From Limnohabitans sp. (lineage in GTDB: Bacteria > Pseudomonadota > Gammaproteobacteria > Burkholderiales > Burkholderiaceae_C), in the NCBI GenBank assembly GCA_018882835.1, contig VERE01000001.1:1-64000 (forward strand): 64,000 nt of DNA, in the 5' to 3' direction. Below the pieces are notes generated by a model. The model was not told the origin of the DNA. It searched no databases and saw nothing but the letters and a program-made list of their open reading frames with translations. Positions 2,570-11,129 of the stretch are shown piece by piece. The first letter of the stretch is position 1; every line of letters begins with the position of its first letter. Both the position numbers and the translations under genes were made by a program.

Positions 2570-3031
2570 CTAGAGCATTTCTGGCGTTTGCACTGTGATC
2601 AAGACCGTCTGGATTTGATCTTCCTTGTGTCGGGAGCGTAGCCACCACACCGAGCCTTTTCGAATAGGAAAGTCCGGGGCATCCAGTTTCAGCAAAGCGG
2701 CTACCGTCTGTCCCAAAAACGGTTGATGGGCAACCACCACCACGGGATTTTTGCCGTGGGGCCATTGCACCAACTCCAGCAAATGCTCATGTGAGCCCTG
2801 CGGGGACAGCTCATCCCGAATTTTGTATTTTCGTCCCATCGGCATGACCGTTTGCTCGGCTCGGCGTGCGGGGCTGCAAAAAATTCGGGCTCCTTCTGGC
2901 AACTGTCGATCCAGCCAACGCGACATCCGTTGCGCCTGCCGTTCACCACGGTGCGTCAAAGCGCGCGCCATATCGTCTTCTCCATCTTCCGCTTCGTGGG
3001 CCTCAGCATGCCGCCAGAGAATCAGATCCAT
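2570..3031 (-). CDS. sixA: Phosphohistidine phosphatase SixA
   Basis: Histidine phosphatase family protein of 153 aa. The catalytic RHA motif with the nucleophilic His at about residue 8 (LILWRHAEA) and the second conserved His in VVAHQPF are both present. SixA removes phosphate from phosphohistidine on HPt domains or the nitrogen phosphotransferase system in other bacteria. It starts one base after the stop codon of ppk1, so the two are almost certainly cotranscribed and would share the Pho box upstream of ppk1. Genes of this family are often next to polyphosphate genes in Burkholderiales, though the functional reason is unclear. Confidence 0.87.
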   Translation of the reverse strand: MDLILWRHAEAHEAEDGEDDMARALTHRGERQAQRMSRWLDRQLPEGARIFCSPARRAEQTVMPMGRKYKIRDELSPQGSHEHLLELVQWPHGKNPVVVVAHQPFLGQTVAALLKLDAPDFPIRKGSVWWLRSRHKEDQIQTVLITVQTPEML

Positions 3032-3032
3032 C

Positions 3033-5123
3033 TCAGGCCTTTCCTGCGTAGCGATGCATCAATTGAGCCTGAGCGCTGAGTTTTTGGCGCCGCACCGCAG
3101 GCTGCAATCTGACATAACTTGAATCAGGCTGAAGCGCCCAGGCATCGGTGTTGTCATTGAGGTAAACGGTCAGACACTCTTCTATCACGCGCTCCCTCAG
3201 GACGGGGTCGAGAACGGGCCAGGCCAGCTCAACCCGGCGCAGCATGTTGCGATTCATCCAGTCAGCACTGGACAAATAAAGCGACTCATCGTCACCTGCG
3301 CAAAAATAAAAAACCCGGGAGTGCTCCAGGAACCGGCCAATCACTGACCGCACTTGAATGTTGTCAGTGATGCCTGCGATCTCTGCCGGCAAAATGCAGG
3401 CACCTCGCACGATCAGCTGCACCCTGGCACCCTGCTGTGCTGCCAGCACCAGGGCGCGCGCCAGGCGGTCGTCGGTCAAGGCGTTCATTTTGGCCACAAT
3501 TCGTGCCGGTTGACCGTTGGCTGCTGCCCGTCCAACCTTTTCGATGGCCAAGACCATTTGGTCCTGCAGCTTGAACGGCGCCACCCAGATGTGGTTCATT
3601 CTGGGCAGCCGACTTTGGCTCGCCAGATGAATGAACAGACGCTCAATATCGGCTGTCAATTTGGCGTTGGCGGTCAGGTAGCTGAGATCCGTGTACAAAC
3701 GTGCGGTCCGAGCGTTGTAATTGCCGGTGGACAAATGCGCATATCGCTTCAACAGCTTGCCCTCGCGACGCGTGACCAGAAGCATCTTGGCATGTGTTTT
3801 AAGGCCAACCACGCCATACACAACTTGCGCACCCACCGACTCCAGTTGCTCTGCCCAATTGATGTTGGCTTCTTCGTCAAAGCGAGCCTTCAGTTCCACC
3901 ACTGCAGTGACCTCTTTGCCACGGCGAACCGCCTCGCGCAACAAATCCATCAACTCTGAGTCAGAGCCTGTTCGGTAAATGGTTTGCTTGATGGCCAAAA
4001 CTTGAGGGTCGTAGACAGCCTCACGCAAAAAGGCCAACACCCCCTCAAAGCTTTCATAAGGCTGGTGAATCAGCACATCACGCGATTGCAACTGGGAAAA
4101 GAGGGAAACGCCATGCGCCAATTCACGTGGATAACTTGGGCGGTAAGGCGTGTAAAGCAAGGACGGCATGTCCATCAAATCAATCAATTGATTGAGACGA
4201 ACCAAATTCACAGGGCCATGCACACGGTAAAGTGCACTGGCAGGCAACTCGAACTGTTTCAACAAGAAATCAGACAAATATTCCGAACATCCCGAGGAAA
4301 CTTCCAGGCGGACGGCGCGCCCAAAATGCCGGTGAACCAAGCCTTGGCGAAGTGCCTTGCGCAAATTTTGGACGTCCTCTTCGTCGACTGTGAGATCAGA
4401 ATCGCGCGTCACACGAAATTGTGAAAACTGGCCCACTTCACGCCCAGGGAACAGGTCTTTCAGATGCGCGCGAATGACACTGGAGAGTGAGACAAACAAG
4501 CTTTTCTTTCCGGCGAGCTTTTCGGGCAACTTGATCACCCGAGGCAACACACGCGGCACTTTCACGATGGCAATTTCATTCTCACGTCCAAATGCGTCCT
4601 TGCCTGACAAACGAACAATGAAATTCAGCGATTTGTTGGCAACCTGCGGAAACGGATGCGCAGGGTCCAATCCCACAGGAATCAGCAGCGGTCGCACCTC
4701 TTGCTCAAAATAACGCCTGACCCAACGTTGCTGCGCAAGTGTTCTTTCACTGTGCGAAAGAATTCTGATACCTGCCTTCGCAAAAGCGGGAATCAGTTGA
4801 TGGTTGTATACATCGTATTGGGCTGCGACCAACTCATGGGCGGCTGCGGAGATGTGCTGGTAGCTTTTGACCGAGAACTGCCCTTTTTCATCGTTGCCCA
4901 ATGCAGCACGGAAGTGAAGTGCAAAACGAACCTCAAAAAACTCATCCATATTGGAAGAGACGATGCACAGATATCTCAAACGCTCGAGCAGCGGAACTTC
5001 CTCACGCCTGGCCCAATCCAAAACCCTGGCATTAAATGACAGTATGGCCTGGTCCCGATCAATGAAAGGGATGGCTTGCGATACTTCCGATGAGGGATTT
5101 GAGGTGGGCACAGAAAGCGACAT
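3033..5123 (-). CDS. ppk1: Polyphosphate kinase 1
   Basis: Makes polyphosphate reversibly from ATP at the inner membrane. The protein is about 696 aa, near the usual 690. It shows the N domain (FNARVLDWA, NMDEFFEVRF), the H domain and the two catalytic domains. The two conserved histidines lie in GLKTHAKM, the autophosphorylated one in E. coli, and YAHLSTGNYN. The ORF track begins at 5174, but that extension reads through a Pho box at 5156-5184, so the first residues are unlikely to be translated. ATG codons at 5135 and 5123 are the candidates; 5123 leaves a plausible short leader, although neither has a clear ribosome binding site. sixA follows directly. Confidence 0.95.
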   Translation of the reverse strand: MSLSVPTSNPSSEVSQAIPFIDRDQAILSFNARVLDWARREEVPLLERLRYLCIVSSNMDEFFEVRFALHFRAALGNDEKGQFSVKSYQHISAAAHELVAAQYDVYNHQLIPAFAKAGIRILSHSERTLAQQRWVRRYFEQEVRPLLIPVGLDPAHPFPQVANKSLNFIVRLSGKDAFGRENEIAIVKVPRVLPRVIKLPEKLAGKKSLFVSLSSVIRAHLKDLFPGREVGQFSQFRVTRDSDLTVDEEDVQNLRKALRQGLVHRHFGRAVRLEVSSGCSEYLSDFLLKQFELPASALYRVHGPVNLVRLNQLIDLMDMPSLLYTPYRPSYPRELAHGVSLFSQLQSRDVLIHQPYESFEGVLAFLREAVYDPQVLAIKQTIYRTGSDSELMDLLREAVRRGKEVTAVVELKARFDEEANINWAEQLESVGAQVVYGVVGLKTHAKMLLVTRREGKLLKRYAHLSTGNYNARTARLYTDLSYLTANAKLTADIERLFIHLASQSRLPRMNHIWVAPFKLQDQMVLAIEKVGRAAANGQPARIVAKMNALTDDRLARALVLAAQQGARVQLIVRGACILPAEIAGITDNIQVRSVIGRFLEHSRVFYFCAGDDESLYLSSADWMNRNMLRRVELAWPVLDPVLRERVIEECLTVYLNDNTDAWALQPDSSYVRLQPAVRRQKLSAQAQLMHRYAGKA

Positions 5124-5150: not shown

Positions 5151-5184
5151 ATAAGATGACAATTTGATGTCCAAATGATGACAA
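5151..5184 (-). promoter_or_regulatory. Candidate Pho box and -10 upstream of ppk1
   Basis: On the minus strand three 7-mers, TTGTCAT, TGGACAT and TTGTCAT, occur at 5184-5178, 5173-5167 and 5162-5156, exactly 11 bases apart. This is the spacing of PhoB sites (consensus CTGTCAT plus 4 bases). Ten bases after the second repeat is TCTTAT (5156-5151), a reasonable -10 for an activator-dependent promoter lacking a -35. The site fills the gap between the glycosyltransferase stop at 5187 and the ppk1 start. Confidence 0.75.
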
Positions 5185-5186
5185 AT

Positions 5187-6221
5187 CTATTTCTTGATCA
5201 ACGTCAGGTTCTTCAAGAACAATGCAGTCGCCTCGGACCAGCTGAAGTCAAGCGCACGCTCGCGCGCTTGCGAGCGCGTGACACACAAAGCCATTTTGAC
5301 AGCCGTTTCCAAATCATCGTGTAATACACCTCCCAGTCGGTCACCTTCCTCGGTGGTGCGCGCGAGAACCTCCAATGGCCCATCCACCGGATAGGCTGCC
5401 ACGGGCGTACCTGCAGCCATGGCCTCGACCATGACCAGGCCAAAAGTCTCTGAGCGACTCGGAAACACAAACACATCGGAAGATTGATAAATCTTGGACA
5501 GGGCTTCCCTTGGCAGAATTCCCAGCCAGGTTACTTCGGCATAGCGCTGCTGAAGTGACTTCAATACGGGTCCAACGCCACAAACTACCTTGCTTCCTCC
5601 TATGGGGAGGTCCAAAAAGGCCTGAATATTTTTCTCATAAGACACGCGCCCTACAAAGAGCATGATGGGGCGCGGCAAATGCCTGAGTAAGTCGTGGTCA
5701 GTTGGCTTGCTCGCATAGGAAAACAAGGTTGTATCCACGCCATGTGTCCAGGTGCGTAAAGTTGAAAAGCCTCGTCGCTCAAGCATCTGCAACACACCGT
5801 GCGTGGGCACCATCACCCCAGAAGAGGGGCGGTGAAAATGTCGCATCAAGGCGTACCCCCAACTCAATGGCACATGCAATGCTGCATTCAGTATTTCAGG
5901 AAATTTGGTGTGGAATGCAGTCGTGAATGCCTTTTTTCTTCGCAATCCGTATTTTCGACCGGCCCAACCCAGAGGCCCTTCGGTCGCGAGGTGAATGGCG
6001 TCAGGATCAAAGTCATCCAGCATCCGACTCAGACCTGCCAGCGGACGAATCGCCAAGTCAATTCCGGTATACCCAGGACAAGGGCGTGTTTTGAAGCAGC
6101 CAGGATGTATGACCAAAACCTCATGGCCAAGCAACGTCAGTTCCTTGACCAACTCCACCAACGTGGTGACCACACCATTGACCTGCGGCATCCATGCATC
6201 GGTGACCAATGCGATCTTCAT
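5187..6221 (-). CDS. GT4 glycosyltransferase, Agt-like (diacylglycerol glycosyltransferase candidate)
   Basis: Cytoplasmic or membrane-associated GT-B glycosyltransferase of 344 aa. The N-terminal MKIALVTDAWMPQ and NGVV loop are typical of family 4 enzymes, as are the C-terminal donor-site motif around SRSETFGLVMVEAMA and the GRVSYEKN segment. It begins with an ATGA overlap on the phosphoesterase gene, so translation is coupled. In alphaproteobacteria and marine bacteria an enzyme of this kind (Agt) is paired with PlcP and glycosylates the diacylglycerol that PlcP releases, forming phosphorus-free glycolipid. That role is inferred here from the pairing and the Pho box. The sugar donor is unknown. 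The ORF-track start at 6269 is replaced by the ATG at 6221. Confidence 0.85.
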   Translation of the reverse strand: MKIALVTDAWMPQVNGVVTTLVELVKELTLLGHEVLVIHPGCFKTRPCPGYTGIDLAIRPLAGLSRMLDDFDPDAIHLATEGPLGWAGRKYGLRRKKAFTTAFHTKFPEILNAALHVPLSWGYALMRHFHRPSSGVMVPTHGVLQMLERRGFSTLRTWTHGVDTTLFSYASKPTDHDLLRHLPRPIMLFVGRVSYEKNIQAFLDLPIGGSKVVCGVGPVLKSLQQRYAEVTWLGILPREALSKIYQSSDVFVFPSRSETFGLVMVEAMAAGTPVAAYPVDGPLEVLARTTEEGDRLGGVLHDDLETAVKMALCVTRSQARERALDFSWSEATALFLKNLTLIKK

Positions 6222-6985
6222 GCCAGACTTTCTTGCAATTGAACACTGTCTCCCATTTGTGGATCCCAAAAGATCAACTCCAAACGGCCGTCATGGTGTT
6301 CCACCAACGCCGAACGGCTTTCGACCCAGTCACCATCGTTGCAGTACACCACCCCATCTATGGTTCGAATTTCAGCCCGAAGAATGTGGCCGCAAATGAC
6401 CCCCTGAAATCCTCGTTTTTGAGCTTCCTGCGCCACCGCTCGCTCAAAAGCAGTGACATAGTTCAAAGCCGTTTTGACTTTGTGCTTCAGGTAAGCGGAT
6501 AAAGACCAGTAAGGCAAACCAAGGCGAGCGCGTGCGCGATTCAAGTTCCGATTCAATCGCAAGGTGAACTCATACAGGTAATCACCCACATAAGCCAACC
6601 ATTTGGCATGCTGGACAACCGCATCGAAATAATCACCGTGGGTCAACCAAAATTTCCGCCCATCAGCCAGGGTGTGCACGGCTTCTTCAGACACATCGAT
6701 ACCACCAAATTGATGGGTCACAAAATCTCTTGCAAACTCATCGTGGTTGCCTGGCACGTAAATTACCTGACATCCCTTGCGAGCCCGTCGCAGCAGTTTT
6801 TGCACCACATCGTTGTGCGCTTGCGGCCAATACCACTTGCGACGCAACTGCCATCCATCCACGATGTCACCCACCAGGTACAGATAATCACTGCTGTTGA
6901 CTTTGAGAAATGACAACAACGCATCGGCTTGACAGCCAGGTGTTCCCAAATGAATGTCAGAAATAAAGATGGCGCGGTAATGCAT
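6218..6985 (-). CDS. PlcP-type metallophosphoesterase (often annotated UDP-2,3-diacylglucosamine diphosphatase)
   Basis: Calcineurin-like metallophosphoesterase of 255 aa. Metal ligands are visible in ISDIHLG (D10, H12), GDIVDGW (D40), GNHDE (N80, H81) and THGD (H116). The pattern CQADALLSFL, the WYWPQAHNDVVQKLLR segment and DWVES resemble PlcP, the phosphate-starvation phospholipase C that removes phospholipid head groups, more than housekeeping LpxH. The expected GHxH motif reads GHIL at 199-202, so the last metal-binding His is replaced by Leu. The start overlaps the upstream stop as TGATG. The PlcP reading is family knowledge plus context; an LpxH-like role is the alternative. Confidence 0.85.
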   Translation of the reverse strand: MHYRAIFISDIHLGTPGCQADALLSFLKVNSSDYLYLVGDIVDGWQLRRKWYWPQAHNDVVQKLLRRARKGCQVIYVPGNHDEFARDFVTHQFGGIDVSEEAVHTLADGRKFWLTHGDYFDAVVQHAKWLAYVGDYLYEFTLRLNRNLNRARARLGLPYWSLSAYLKHKVKTALNYVTAFERAVAQEAQKRGFQGVICGHILRAEIRTIDGVVYCNDGDWVESRSALVEHHDGRLELIFWDPQMGDSVQLQESLA

Positions 6986-7830
6986 CAAGCACCCAGGAAG
7001 TGCTTTCTGTAACGGGAAGGTAAATCAGCGATTCGCATCAGCATAGGCAAATCTGCTGTATTGAAGTCTGGGTCCCACGCAGGCGCACCCAGTATGCGAG
7101 CACCTAGTCGCAAATAGCCTTTGATCAGCGCCGGTGGCTCGGCAGTCAAAGCATGATTGAATTGTTCCACTGGCAAAGGCAAGCGCGGTCTGACCTGAAG
7201 TTCGATCGGGGCTAAATGCGTCTGCTTCAATTGATGCCAAATGCTGGCCGCAACTTCACCACTGACAACGCCGTTGTGCATCATGGGAATGCTTGCGCAT
7301 CCAATCATGGTGTCGAGTTGATTGCGCACCATGAACTCAGCCAATGCGCCCCACAAGGCCATGATGACCCCGCCATGTCGATAATCAGCATGGACACAAC
7401 TGCGCCCTAATTCCACCATGCGCTCACGCAAGTTGCGCAGGCGCGTCAGGTCAAATTCGGTATCGGTGTAAGTGCTGCCCACTCGCAATGCTTGTGCCGG
7501 CGTCAAGACGCGGTAAGTCCCAATCACCTCTTGCGATTCAGCATCGCGCACCAATAAATGTTCGCAGTAGTCGTCAAATAAATCGATGTCATGCTCTGGC
7601 AGTGGGGTGCTGAGGCGCGCCCCCATTTCATACGCAAAGATGCTGTACCTCAGTCGCTGTGCGGCCCGTACTTCATCGAGGTGCCGTGCCCACGCCACCT
7701 CGATACCACTTGACTCAGCAATTTTGCGAGGCTGAGATGCAGCGCCGGCTTGATGCGCGCTTTGATGAAGTAACCCCCTGGGCAAAGCTATGGGTGAAAG
7801 GTCGAGTGTGGGGGTTGGCAATTCTTTCAT
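6985..7830 (-). CDS. GNAT-family N-acyltransferase, OlsB/hemolysin-like
   Basis: First gene of the operon, 281 aa. It belongs to the acyl-transferring GNAT group that includes OlsB, which attaches 3-hydroxy fatty acid to ornithine in ornithine-lipid synthesis. Visible family features are the RLRYSIFAYEMGA segment (about 75-90), GTYRVLTP, and the ELGRSCVHADYR acyl-donor region. The chosen ATG at 7830 has GGAG six bases upstream; the track start at 7932 would read through the Pho box. No olsA partner is in the window, so ornithine-lipid synthesis is a hypothesis. Placement ahead of PlcP- and Agt-like genes supports a role in membrane-lipid replacement. Confidence 0.82.
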   Translation of the reverse strand: MKELPTPTLDLSPIALPRGLLHQSAHQAGAASQPRKIAESSGIEVAWARHLDEVRAAQRLRYSIFAYEMGARLSTPLPEHDIDLFDDYCEHLLVRDAESQEVIGTYRVLTPAQALRVGSTYTDTEFDLTRLRNLRERMVELGRSCVHADYRHGGVIMALWGALAEFMVRNQLDTMIGCASIPMMHNGVVSGEVAASIWHQLKQTHLAPIELQVRPRLPLPVEQFNHALTAEPPALIKGYLRLGARILGAPAWDPDFNTADLPMLMRIADLPSRYRKHFLGA

Positions 7831-7859
7831 GGCATCTCCGTTGAATAAGCTTGCAGGAG

Positions 7860-7904
7860 AGTTTGAAGAGCTGCCGTGACACTGCCATGTCACTTTCATG
7901 AAGA
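7860..7904 (-). promoter_or_regulatory. Candidate Pho box upstream of the acyltransferase-phosphoesterase-glycosyltransferase operon
   Basis: On the minus strand TCTTCAT (7904-7898), GTGACAT (7893-7887) and GTGTCAC (7882-7876) are spaced exactly 11 bases apart. The second and third match CTGTCAT at 5 of 7 positions each. Ten bases after the third is CAAACT (7865-7860), a weak -10, giving a predicted start near 7853 and a leader of about 23 bases to the GGAG/ATG of the first gene. An additional TTGTCAT in the opposite orientation lies at 7907-7913. Confidence 0.65.
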
Positions 7905-8005: not shown

Positions 8006-8383
8006 TTGAAAATCACCGTCATGGGGGCAGACTACGTGGGGCTTGTCATTGGAGCTTATTGCGCGGAAGCTGGCGGCAGCGTGGTTTGCTATGACAGTGA
8101 CATCGACAAGATTCAGTCATTGCAGCGCTGCAAAATTTCCGTGATCGACCCCGACCTCCAGAGCTTGATGGCCAGAAACAAGGGCGCGGGGAGGCTGCGA
8201 TTCACGCACGATGCCGTTTACAGCATTCACCGTGCTGAACTCATTTTCATCACAATCAGCAGATGTTCGATGCCACACTCCTCATGCAATTGTTTGTCGA
8301 GGACCCTTAAAAATGTGCATCGATGGGGAAACCGTTGCGAAGTGATTTTGGTGAATTCCACATTTGGTATGGATATTTCATGA
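8006..8383 (+). pseudogene. Decayed UDP-glucose 6-dehydrogenase, N-terminal remnant
   Basis: The first 80 residues read like the NAD-binding start of UDP-glucose/nucleotide-sugar dehydrogenase: MKITVMGADYVGL, IDPDLQSLMARN and GRLRFTHDAV. The normal enzyme is about 440 aa; this frame stops at 125. The glycine motif GxGYVG has become GADYVG, and the expected GTPP and KSTVPVGT regions are degraded (VNSTFGMD just before the stop). A TTG start with GAGGGA upstream is preserved. Weak similarity may continue in another frame to about 8480. An intact dehydrogenase is no longer encoded here. Confidence 0.72.
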
Positions 8384-9736: not shown

Positions 9737-9812
9737 ATTTTTAGATTGAAAAATCCTGTTGCTATCGATCCATCTCGATCGACGCACTCCAATAATCACA
9801 TGGATTCATTCA

Positions 9813-11129
9813 ATGAAAACTAACATCTCTCTCTCTCGTAAAAGTGTTGCTGTTGCAGTCATTCTGGCTTGTTTGACTTTTTCTCAACAGTCTTTTGCCC
9901 AAGATGGGAAAGTTCAGTCTAATGGCCTGGGTTTGTCCTCGGCCAACGGGGAAACCACCCTTAACTTGGTTGGCCGGCTGCACTTTGACGTTCGCAGTTT
10001 CAACAGTACTTTCGCCAACAACATGACGACTGACAAGGACACCGCAAAATACGGTGACACCTATGACATCCGTCGCGCACGAATTGGCATCCAAGGCACC
10101 TTCATGAAGGATGTCGCATATGAAATTGTCTTCAATGCGCCCAGTTCCGACAGCACCAACCTGGACACTGGCTTCATCAACTACACGCTAAGCAAGCCCT
10201 TGCAATTTCGCGTCGGTAAATTCAAGCAGCAATTCAATTTGGAAGAGTTGACCAGCTCAAACAACATTGACTTCATTGAGCGCTCTTATGTCAATCAGTT
10301 CGCACCAGGCAAAAAACTGGGCATGATGATTCATGGCGCGCCCAAAGACGGCCTTTACTATGGCGTGAGCATGTTCCAGGAAGGGACCTCTGTTTCCTCG
10401 GCTTCTCGCAACACGCAAAATTCTGCCCGCCTTGCAAGCAACCTGGCCCAGCTGACTGGCATCAAAGATTCAGTACTGCACTTTGGTGTTGCACAAACCT
10501 CCGGCAGCTTTGATGTTGCATCAGGCGCAACCGGCGATATCCTGAAATTGCGCACCGATGCACGCGGCGTCGATGGCGTTTTTGCCTCGACATTTGCCAA
10601 CGGCTCAACGACAAATATCAACGAAGTCAGCCGGACGCAATCTGGGCTTGAAGTGGCGTATGCCACTGGCCCGCTGAAGATTCAAGCAGAAGCCGTCAAG
10701 TCGAAATACAGCTTTAACAACGGCCTTTCAGGGACAACACTGAACACTGTTGATGGAAAAATCAACACGCAGTACCTCGCCGTGATGTACAACATCACAG
10801 GTGAAAAGTGGTCTGACGCCTACAAAGACGGCGCATTCTCAGGCACCAAGCCTTTGGCCAATTTCAGCAGCAGCGGCAAAGGCAACGGCGCTTGGCAAAT
10901 TGGCGTGCGCGTTTCTTCTTACGATGCCAATGATTGGGTGGCGACCACAGCGACCACTGGCTCTAAAAAAGGAAGCACGACAACCTTCGGCGTAAACTGG
11001 ATTTTGAACCCCAATGCGCGCCTCATGCTGAACCATTCGGCATCGAAGTTTGACACCGCGTTTGCAGCGGGAGCCGCTACCGGCGACAAAGAAAAAGTCA
11101 CCACGCTGCGCACCCAAATCAATTTCTAA
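9813..11129 (+). CDS. Outer-membrane porin, phosphate-selective OprO/OprP type
   Basis: A 438-aa outer-membrane beta-barrel precursor. The ATG at 9813 gives a clear signal peptide: basic start, hydrophobic core, and cleavage after QQSFA. After it come a LVGRLHFDVRSF first strand, RRARIGIQGTF, the FRVGKFKQQFN segment, and a terminal strand ending in F (LRTQINF), all as in the phosphate-selective porin O/P family. Such porins pass phosphate or polyphosphate, which suits neighbouring polyphosphate genes, but specificity cannot be read directly. The track start at 9759 is rejected because it would bury the signal peptide. A perfect terminator follows. Confidence 0.9.
   Translation: MKTNISLSRKSVAVAVILACLTFSQQSFAQDGKVQSNGLGLSSANGETTLNLVGRLHFDVRSFNSTFANNMTTDKDTAKYGDTYDIRRARIGIQGTFMKDVAYEIVFNAPSSDSTNLDTGFINYTLSKPLQFRVGKFKQQFNLEELTSSNNIDFIERSYVNQFAPGKKLGMMIHGAPKDGLYYGVSMFQEGTSVSSASRNTQNSARLASNLAQLTGIKDSVLHFGVAQTSGSFDVASGATGDILKLRTDARGVDGVFASTFANGSTTNINEVSRTQSGLEVAYATGPLKIQAEAVKSKYSFNNGLSGTTLNTVDGKINTQYLAVMYNITGEKWSDAYKDGAFSGTKPLANFSSSGKGNGAWQIGVRVSSYDANDWVATTATTGSKKGSTTTFGVNWILNPNARLMLNHSASKFDTAFAAGAATGDKEKVTTLRTQINF

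What the first reader, a model, noticed from the sequence alone, without database searches (positions are those of the whole stretch)
5187..7904. Pho-box-controlled lipid-remodelling operon: OlsB-like, PlcP-like, Agt-like
The sequence shows three translationally coupled genes behind three 7-mers at exact 11-base spacing, followed by a -10-like hexamer, GGAG and ATG at sensible distances. Known families: PlcP removes phospholipid head groups under phosphate starvation, Agt glycosylates the resulting diacylglycerol, and OlsB starts ornithine-lipid synthesis. Joining all three in one operon would give a single unit that swaps phospholipids for two kinds of phosphorus-free lipid. Standard annotation would probably call the middle gene a lipid A enzyme and miss this.
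Basis: partly seen in the sequence, partly recalled or inferred. Interest (0 to 1): 0.8.

Follow-up and report, generated by a model that had tools for sequence, protein, structure and literature searches.

The report
Phosphate-starvation membrane-lipid swap operon
A freshwater relative of Limnohabitans carries, behind a likely phosphate-starvation switch, three genes that together should replace phosphorus-containing membrane lipids with two phosphorus-free kinds; the same three-gene unit recurs in dozens of related bacteria, but this particular copy may be partly broken.

Summary
Three overlapping minus-strand genes (7830-6985, 6985-6218, 6221-5187) follow three 7-mers at exact 11-base spacing. 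Best families: OlsB, PlcP (not LpxH) and an Agt1-like GT4 glycosyltransferase. PlcP is 52% identical to S. meliloti PlcP and 57% to the P. aeruginosa one, but only 27% over 118 aa to E. coli LpxH; the genome has a separate canonical lpxH. olsB sits directly upstream of plcP in 42 of 104 plcP-bearing genomes of the family, usually as olsB-plcP-agt-ppk1-sixA. PhoB-type boxes are enriched upstream of olsB and ppk1, not of plcP, agt or sixA; where phoX precedes olsB, the box before olsB disappears. In Limnohabitans relatives olsA lies divergently beside olsB. The enzymes and the plcP-agt pair are known; I found no description of the olsB-plcP-agt fusion, but the closest candidate paper (SAR11 four-gene cluster) was not readable. 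Two corrections for this genome: its PlcP has H202L at a predicted metal ligand that is His in all 80 named relatives, and the neighbouring ugd is a decayed remnant with no intact copy found. Glucuronosyl lipid is therefore unlikely here, and PlcP may be inactive, unless the base is an assembly error.

The parts
7876..7904 (-). Pho-box-like element: TCTTCAT-gaaa-GTGACAT-ggca-GTGTCAC, at -74/-63/-52 from the olsB ATG
   Evidence: conserved in the sister genome L118 and enriched upstream of olsB in relatives
7836..7839 (-). GGAG, Shine-Dalgarno-like, 5 nt before the olsB ATG
   Evidence: sequence
6985..7830 (-). olsB-like ornithine N-acyltransferase (PF13444), 281 aa
   Evidence: NCBIfam OlsB models are the best hits (163 and 153 bits; curated cut-offs 350 and 320), PF13444 118.6 bits; 34% to S. 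meliloti OlsB over 273 aa, E 5e-37; only PF13444 gene in the genome
6218..6985 (-). plcP-like metallophosphoesterase (phospholipase C type), 255 aa, with H202L (codon 6382-6380) in motif GHxH
   Evidence: 52% to S. meliloti PlcP, 57% to P. aeruginosa PlcP, 27% over 118 aa to E. coli LpxH; LpxH model 44 bits vs cut-off 134; H202L unique
5187..6221 (-). agt-like GT4 glycosyltransferase, 344 aa
   Evidence: PF13439 and PF00534; 46% over 337 aa to the P. aeruginosa glycosyltransferase downstream of plcP, i.e. Agt1
8006..8383 (+). decayed remnant of ugd (UDP-glucose 6-dehydrogenase, N-terminal part only), divergent from the operon
   Evidence: 36% to the N-terminal 95 aa of L042 Ugd; no other ugd match in the genome; 48% aa identity to the sister's remnant vs 83-95% for the operon genes
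3033..5117 (-). ppk1, next gene in the same direction; in relatives it has its own Pho box
   Evidence: in the window itself the ppk1 box alone is not significant (36/200 shuffles)
2570..3031 (-). sixA-like gene, last member of the conserved order olsB-plcP-agt-ppk1-sixA
   Evidence: gene order; the name is my reading, no family search was run on it

Best explanation
This is a PhoB-controlled lipid-remodelling operon. When phosphate is scarce, PhoB binds the repeats upstream of olsB and the three genes are transcribed together. PlcP cleaves the phospho-head-group from phospholipids, leaving diacylglycerol and freeing phosphate. Agt glucosylates the diacylglycerol, most likely from UDP-glucose to MGDG, since intact ugd is missing. 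OlsB N-acylates ornithine, and a second acyltransferase encoded elsewhere (candidate at G000:C21:57111) would complete ornithine lipid. Shown here: gene identity by family and by similarity to characterised homologues, genome context, conservation of the unit, and the Pho-box signal. Inferred: co-transcription, induction, substrates and lipid products. For the window genome itself PlcP activity is doubtful because of H202L, a change at a predicted metal-1 ligand, so this copy may make ornithine lipid but little glycolipid unless the change is an assembly error.
For: Family scans. PlcP closer to S. meliloti and P. aeruginosa PlcP than to LpxH, split supported in the tree. Canonical lpxH elsewhere at 227 bits, over its cut-off. 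olsB immediately upstream of plcP in 42 of 104 plcP genomes of the family (plus one downstream); order olsB-plcP-agt-ppk1-sixA in most of them and in many of 80 named relatives. In other Burkholderiales families olsB is within 10 kb of plcP in 15 of 61 genomes with both, in several different arrangements. Pho boxes of at least 11/14 upstream of olsB in 18/33 genomes without phoX, 0/8 with phoX, 0/42 upstream of plcP, 1/37 of agt, 0/29 of sixA, 20/31 of ppk1; similar in the second, partly overlapping, named set. phoB over its cut-off, in a pst-pho cluster. dN/dS against the sister genome about 0.015-0.05 for the three genes (dS near saturation, so rough). P. aeruginosa PlcP and Agt1 are experimentally characterised, Agt1 using only UDP-glucose (PMC8528852).
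Against: No transcript or lipid data. OlsB scores below the curated NCBIfam cut-offs. The window's Pho box alone is only modestly significant. H202L removes a residue equivalent to LpxH His197, an Mn1 ligand (PMC5016852). In about half of the plcP genomes of the family olsB lies elsewhere, so the fusion is not obligatory.
Confidence: 0.8

Rival explanations
1. The lineage of this genome is losing the pathway: ugd has decayed and PlcP carries a disabling substitution, so the operon is only partly functional (ornithine lipid only) in this strain. This is compatible with the best explanation for the relatives.
For: H202L is the only substitution of the window PlcP at a column otherwise invariant in 57 homologues, and all 80 named relatives, including a 95% identical sister, have His there. 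The ugd remnant is shared with the sister and evolves without visible constraint (48% aa identity vs 83-95% for the operon). No intact ugd was found in the genome.
Against: olsB, plcP and agt are otherwise under strong purifying selection with no frameshift or stop. The assembly is draft (107 contigs, 5% contamination), so one base may be an error and ugd could lie in missing sequence.
Confidence: 0.4
2. The middle gene is a lipid A enzyme (LpxH-like) and the operon serves lipopolysaccharide synthesis.
For: The best NCBIfam models are LpxH (44 bits), the nearest solved structures by fold are LpxH, and databases label such genes UDP-2,3-diacylglucosamine diphosphatase.
Against: 44 bits is far below the 134-bit cut-off; 27% identity over 118 aa to E. 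coli LpxH against 52-57% over nearly full length to PlcPs; a separate canonical lpxH in the genome; neighbours are phosphate genes.
Confidence: 0.03
3. The three genes are conserved neighbours but not one Pho-controlled transcription unit; the 11-base repeats are chance.
For: The window box alone is reached by about 1% of shuffles and the -10 looks weak; gaps of 72-376 bp separate olsB and plcP in many relatives.
Against: The box recurs upstream of olsB and is absent upstream of plcP and agt and in phoX-led clusters; overlapping genes in the window clade.
Confidence: 0.1
4. The PF13444 protein is an N-acyltransferase for another amino acid (as for glutamine or glycine lipids).
For: Scores are below the OlsB equivalog cut-offs and its identity to S. 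meliloti OlsB is only 34%.
Against: OlsB models beat GlsB (21 bits) and OlsF (48 bits) clearly; OlsA-like genes sit divergently beside it in Limnohabitans.
Confidence: 0.15

Closest known systems
plcP-agt operons (Pelagibacter HTCC7211, Erythrobacter, P. aeruginosa PA3219-PA3218, Methylosinus trichosporium OB3b; PMC4796936, PMC8528852, PMC9239053)
   Same: PlcP followed directly by an Agt-type GT4 enzyme, with a Pho box reported for several of them
   Different: Here olsB is fused in front, the Pho box lies upstream of olsB instead of plcP, and ppk1-sixA follow
olsBA operon of Pseudomonas (PhoB-dependent ornithine lipid synthesis; PMC5082522, PMC9804370)
   Same: OlsB induced under low phosphate
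   Different: In Pseudomonas it is separate from plcP-agt1; here olsB leads the plcP-agt operon and the OlsA candidate is elsewhere (divergent neighbour in Limnohabitans)
SAR11 four-gene lipid-renovation cluster (Carini et al. 2015; paper not held; known to me from memory of its abstract only)
   Same: A small phosphate-starvation-induced cluster proposed to make glycolipids and ornithine lipids
   Different: I could not check whether it holds an olsB; the taxon differs (Alphaproteobacteria) and the ppk1/sixA/phoX/olsA context was not compared
S. meliloti PlcP and OlsB/OlsA
   Same: Classically characterised homologues (52% and 34% identity for PlcP and OlsB)
   Different: plcP and olsB are far apart in the S. 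meliloti record examined

Membership tests
PlcP (phosphate-starvation phospholipase C) | Sequence closer to characterised PlcP than to LpxH | tested here: met
   52-57% to PlcPs, 27% over 118 aa to LpxH; tree split
PlcP (phosphate-starvation phospholipase C) | All seven metal ligands of the metallophosphoesterase site | tested here: not met
   D10, H12, D40, N80, H116 and H200 present, but position 202 is Leu, not His; His in all 80 named relatives. The window protein is a PlcP orthologue by descent, but its activity cannot be assumed
PlcP (phosphate-starvation phospholipase C) | Phospholipid cleavage, induced at low phosphate | not testable with these tools
   needs enzyme assay and lipidomics
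LpxH | Score above the LpxH curated cut-off; no other LpxH in the genome | tested here: not met
   44 bits vs 134; another gene scores 227
OlsB | PF13444 domain, OlsB models as best hits | tested here: met
OlsB | Score above the OlsB equivalog cut-off | tested here: not met
   163 vs 350 and 153 vs 320 bits; the two models carry Rhodobacter- and Brucella-type names, so the cut-offs may be narrow; hence 'OlsB-like'
OlsB | Partner O-acyltransferase OlsA in the genome | tested here: inconclusive
   C21 candidate: best NCBIfam hit OlsA 140.8 bits, below its 300 cut-off; 39-42% to S. meliloti OlsA over 121-136 aa, versus 30% for the genome's PlsC-like gene
Agt | GT4 domains, directly downstream of plcP, similar to a characterised Agt | tested here: met
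   46% over 337 aa to P. aeruginosa Agt1
Agt | Sugar donor and glycolipid product | not testable with these tools
   UDP-glucose inferred from Agt1 (PMC8528852) and absence of intact ugd
Pho regulon | PhoB box at a sensible distance, conserved in relatives | tested here: met
Pho regulon | PhoB-dependent induction at low phosphate | not testable with these tools
   needs transcript data

The most novel reading that the evidence does not exclude
Freshwater Comamonadaceae carry a previously undescribed Pho-controlled supercluster, (phoX)-olsB-plcP-agt-ppk1-sixA, joined by olsA and ugd in Limnohabitans, that couples phospholipid breakdown, two kinds of phosphorus-free lipid and polyphosphate metabolism in one locus.
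Probability: 0.5. Interest if true: 0.6.

Novelty: new variant of a known kind. Interest (0 to 1): 0.5.

Why it matters
Phosphorus limits many lakes, and Limnohabitans-like bacteria are common in them. Lipid swapping under phosphate starvation has been worked out mainly in marine Alphaproteobacteria, rhizobia and Pseudomonas. If this operon works as proposed, whole groups of freshwater Betaproteobacteria can lower their phosphorus demand by two lipid routes under one switch, and a gene routinely labelled as a lipid A enzyme is a marker for that capacity. Named relatives with the unit include isolates (Limnohabitans sp. B9-3 and JirII-31, Curvibacter delicatus, Hydrogenophaga taeniospiralis, Polaromonas sp. 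JS666), so it is directly testable.

Tried and rejected
Middle gene as LpxH: rejected. Pho box as chance: weak in isolation, rejected on conservation. Tested whether the olsB-plcP gap of other genera holds a second Pho box: almost never. Searched the genome for an intact ugd and for further PF13444 genes: none. The AlphaFold model of PlcP is mediocre (pLDDT 75); its best fold matches are LpxH structures, which only confirms the metallophosphoesterase fold. The SAR11 cluster paper is not held, so whether it contains olsB is open. The two Pho-box sets overlap partly in genomes.

Full report
The three genes are real and as described. On the minus strand, 7830-6985 encodes a 281-aa protein, 6985-6218 a 255-aa protein and 6221-5187 a 344-aa protein. 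The first two share one base (TGATG) and the last two overlap by four (ATGA). Upstream, TCTTCAT, GTGACAT and GTGTCAC begin at 7904, 7893 and 7882, exactly 11 bases apart, at -74, -63 and -52 from the first ATG.

Identity. The first protein has PF13444 and its best NCBIfam models are two OlsB equivalogs (163 and 153 bits, below their cut-offs of 350 and 320), well ahead of OlsF (48) and GlsB (21). It is 34% identical over 273 aa to S. meliloti OlsB. The second is a metallophosphoesterase. LpxH models give at most 44 bits against a cut-off of 134. It is 52% identical to the S. meliloti and 57% to the P. aeruginosa PlcP, but only 27% over 118 aa to E. coli LpxH, and the tree separates the two groups (I identified the S. 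meliloti and P. aeruginosa genes as the characterised ones by their neighbours, from my own knowledge of those loci and from PMC8528852). A canonical lpxH lies elsewhere in the genome (227 bits). The third is a GT4 glycosyltransferase, 46% identical over 337 aa to the P. aeruginosa enzyme directly downstream of plcP, Agt1, which accepts only UDP-glucose and makes MGDG (PMC8528852).

Conservation of the unit. plcP is present in 106 of 151 genomes of the family and olsB in 124. Among the 104 plcP genomes compared, olsB is directly upstream on the same strand in 42, directly downstream in 1, elsewhere in the genome in 55 (3 of these within 10 kb), and absent in 6. In those 42 the usual order is olsB-plcP-agt-ppk1-sixA, often with ppx nearby; phoX is directly upstream of olsB in 8 of the loci fetched. 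Of 80 named relatives, 51 have olsB beside plcP. In Limnohabitans and similar genomes an OlsA-like acyltransferase gene is divergent from olsB (12 of the 80, and L042), and in some an intact ugd follows agt. In other families of the order olsB lies within 10 kb of plcP in 15 of 61 genomes with both, in several different arrangements, which argues for a functional link and not just inherited order.

Pho control. Counting matches to CTGTCATNNNNCTGTCAT (14 positions, last C allowed; the consensus is cited in PMC8528852), the 200 nt upstream of olsB reach at least 11 in 18 of 33 genomes without phoX, against 5 of 33 on the other strand. The values are 0 of 8 where phoX precedes olsB, 0 of 42 upstream of plcP, 1 of 37 of agt, 0 of 29 of sixA and 20 of 31 of ppk1. 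The second, partly overlapping, set gives 13 of 43, 0 of 51, 1 of 42, 0 of 25 and 24 of 33 for olsB, plcP, agt, sixA and ppk1. The window box scores 11, the same as the best box upstream of this genome's pstS, and aligns with TTGACACGGCCTTGTCAC in the sister genome L118. phoB is over its cut-off and lies in a pstSCAB-phoU-phoB-phoR cluster (the names other than phoB are my reading of the translations). The olsA, ugd, phoX, ppx and sixA labels in relatives rest on similarity to one query each; OlsA and Ugd queries were checked against NCBIfam, the phoX, ppx and sixA ones were named by eye.

What is different in this genome. First, PlcP has GHIL where the others have GHIH. Position 202 is His in all other aligned homologues (57 rows) and in all 80 named relatives, including L118 at 95% identity. 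The equivalent residue in LpxH, His197, is a ligand of Mn1 (PMC5016852), and an LpxH mutant lacking another Mn1 ligand did not hold product. This is the only substitution of the window PlcP at an otherwise invariant column. Second, 8006-8383 on the plus strand is a remnant of ugd: it matches only the N-terminal 95 residues at 36%, is 48% identical to the corresponding remnant of L118 while the operon genes are 83-95% identical, and is the only ugd match in the genome. In L120 an intact ugd stands in the same place. Glucuronosyl-diacylglycerol is therefore unlikely in this strain, and MGDG depends on whether PlcP still works. The draft assembly (107 contigs, 98% complete, 5% contamination) leaves room for a base error and for missing genes.

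Novelty. The enzymes, plcP-agt operons and PhoB-controlled olsBA are known (PMC4796936, PMC9239053, PMC5082522, PMC8528852, PMC9804370). The library searches returned no paper that I recognised as describing an olsB-plcP-agt operon, but I read only passages, the library is open-access only, and the SAR11 four-gene cluster paper could not be read. I therefore call it a new variant of a known kind with moderate interest.

Noticed in passing
window 8006-8383 (+); L118 2108-2512 (-): Fast-evolving remnant of the N-terminal domain of UDP-glucose 6-dehydrogenase that has stayed an open frame of about 125 codons in two sister genomes, although the rest of the gene is gone.
   Followed up: partly
window 6380-6382 (-): Unique Leu codon at a metal-ligand His of PlcP; recent mutation or assembly error.
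   Followed up: partly
window 5156-5195 (-): Pho-box-like repeats upstream of ppk1 (10/14); not significant in the window alone, but ppk1 has a strong Pho box in most relatives.
   Followed up: partly
window 9759-11129 (+): Phosphate-selective porin O/P family protein (PF07396) near the operon, possibly another phosphate-uptake gene.
   Followed up: no
L069, L074, L079, L088: In relatives without the adjacent agt, a second GT4 gene (35% to P. aeruginosa Agt1) sits beside ugd, possibly the glucuronosyl (Agt2-type) branch.
   Followed up: partly
PLSDB record CP090106.1: This S. meliloti record, named plasmid pSymB, is 3.7 Mb and holds housekeeping genes such as mutS and trpS, so it looks like a mislabelled chromosome.
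   Followed up: no
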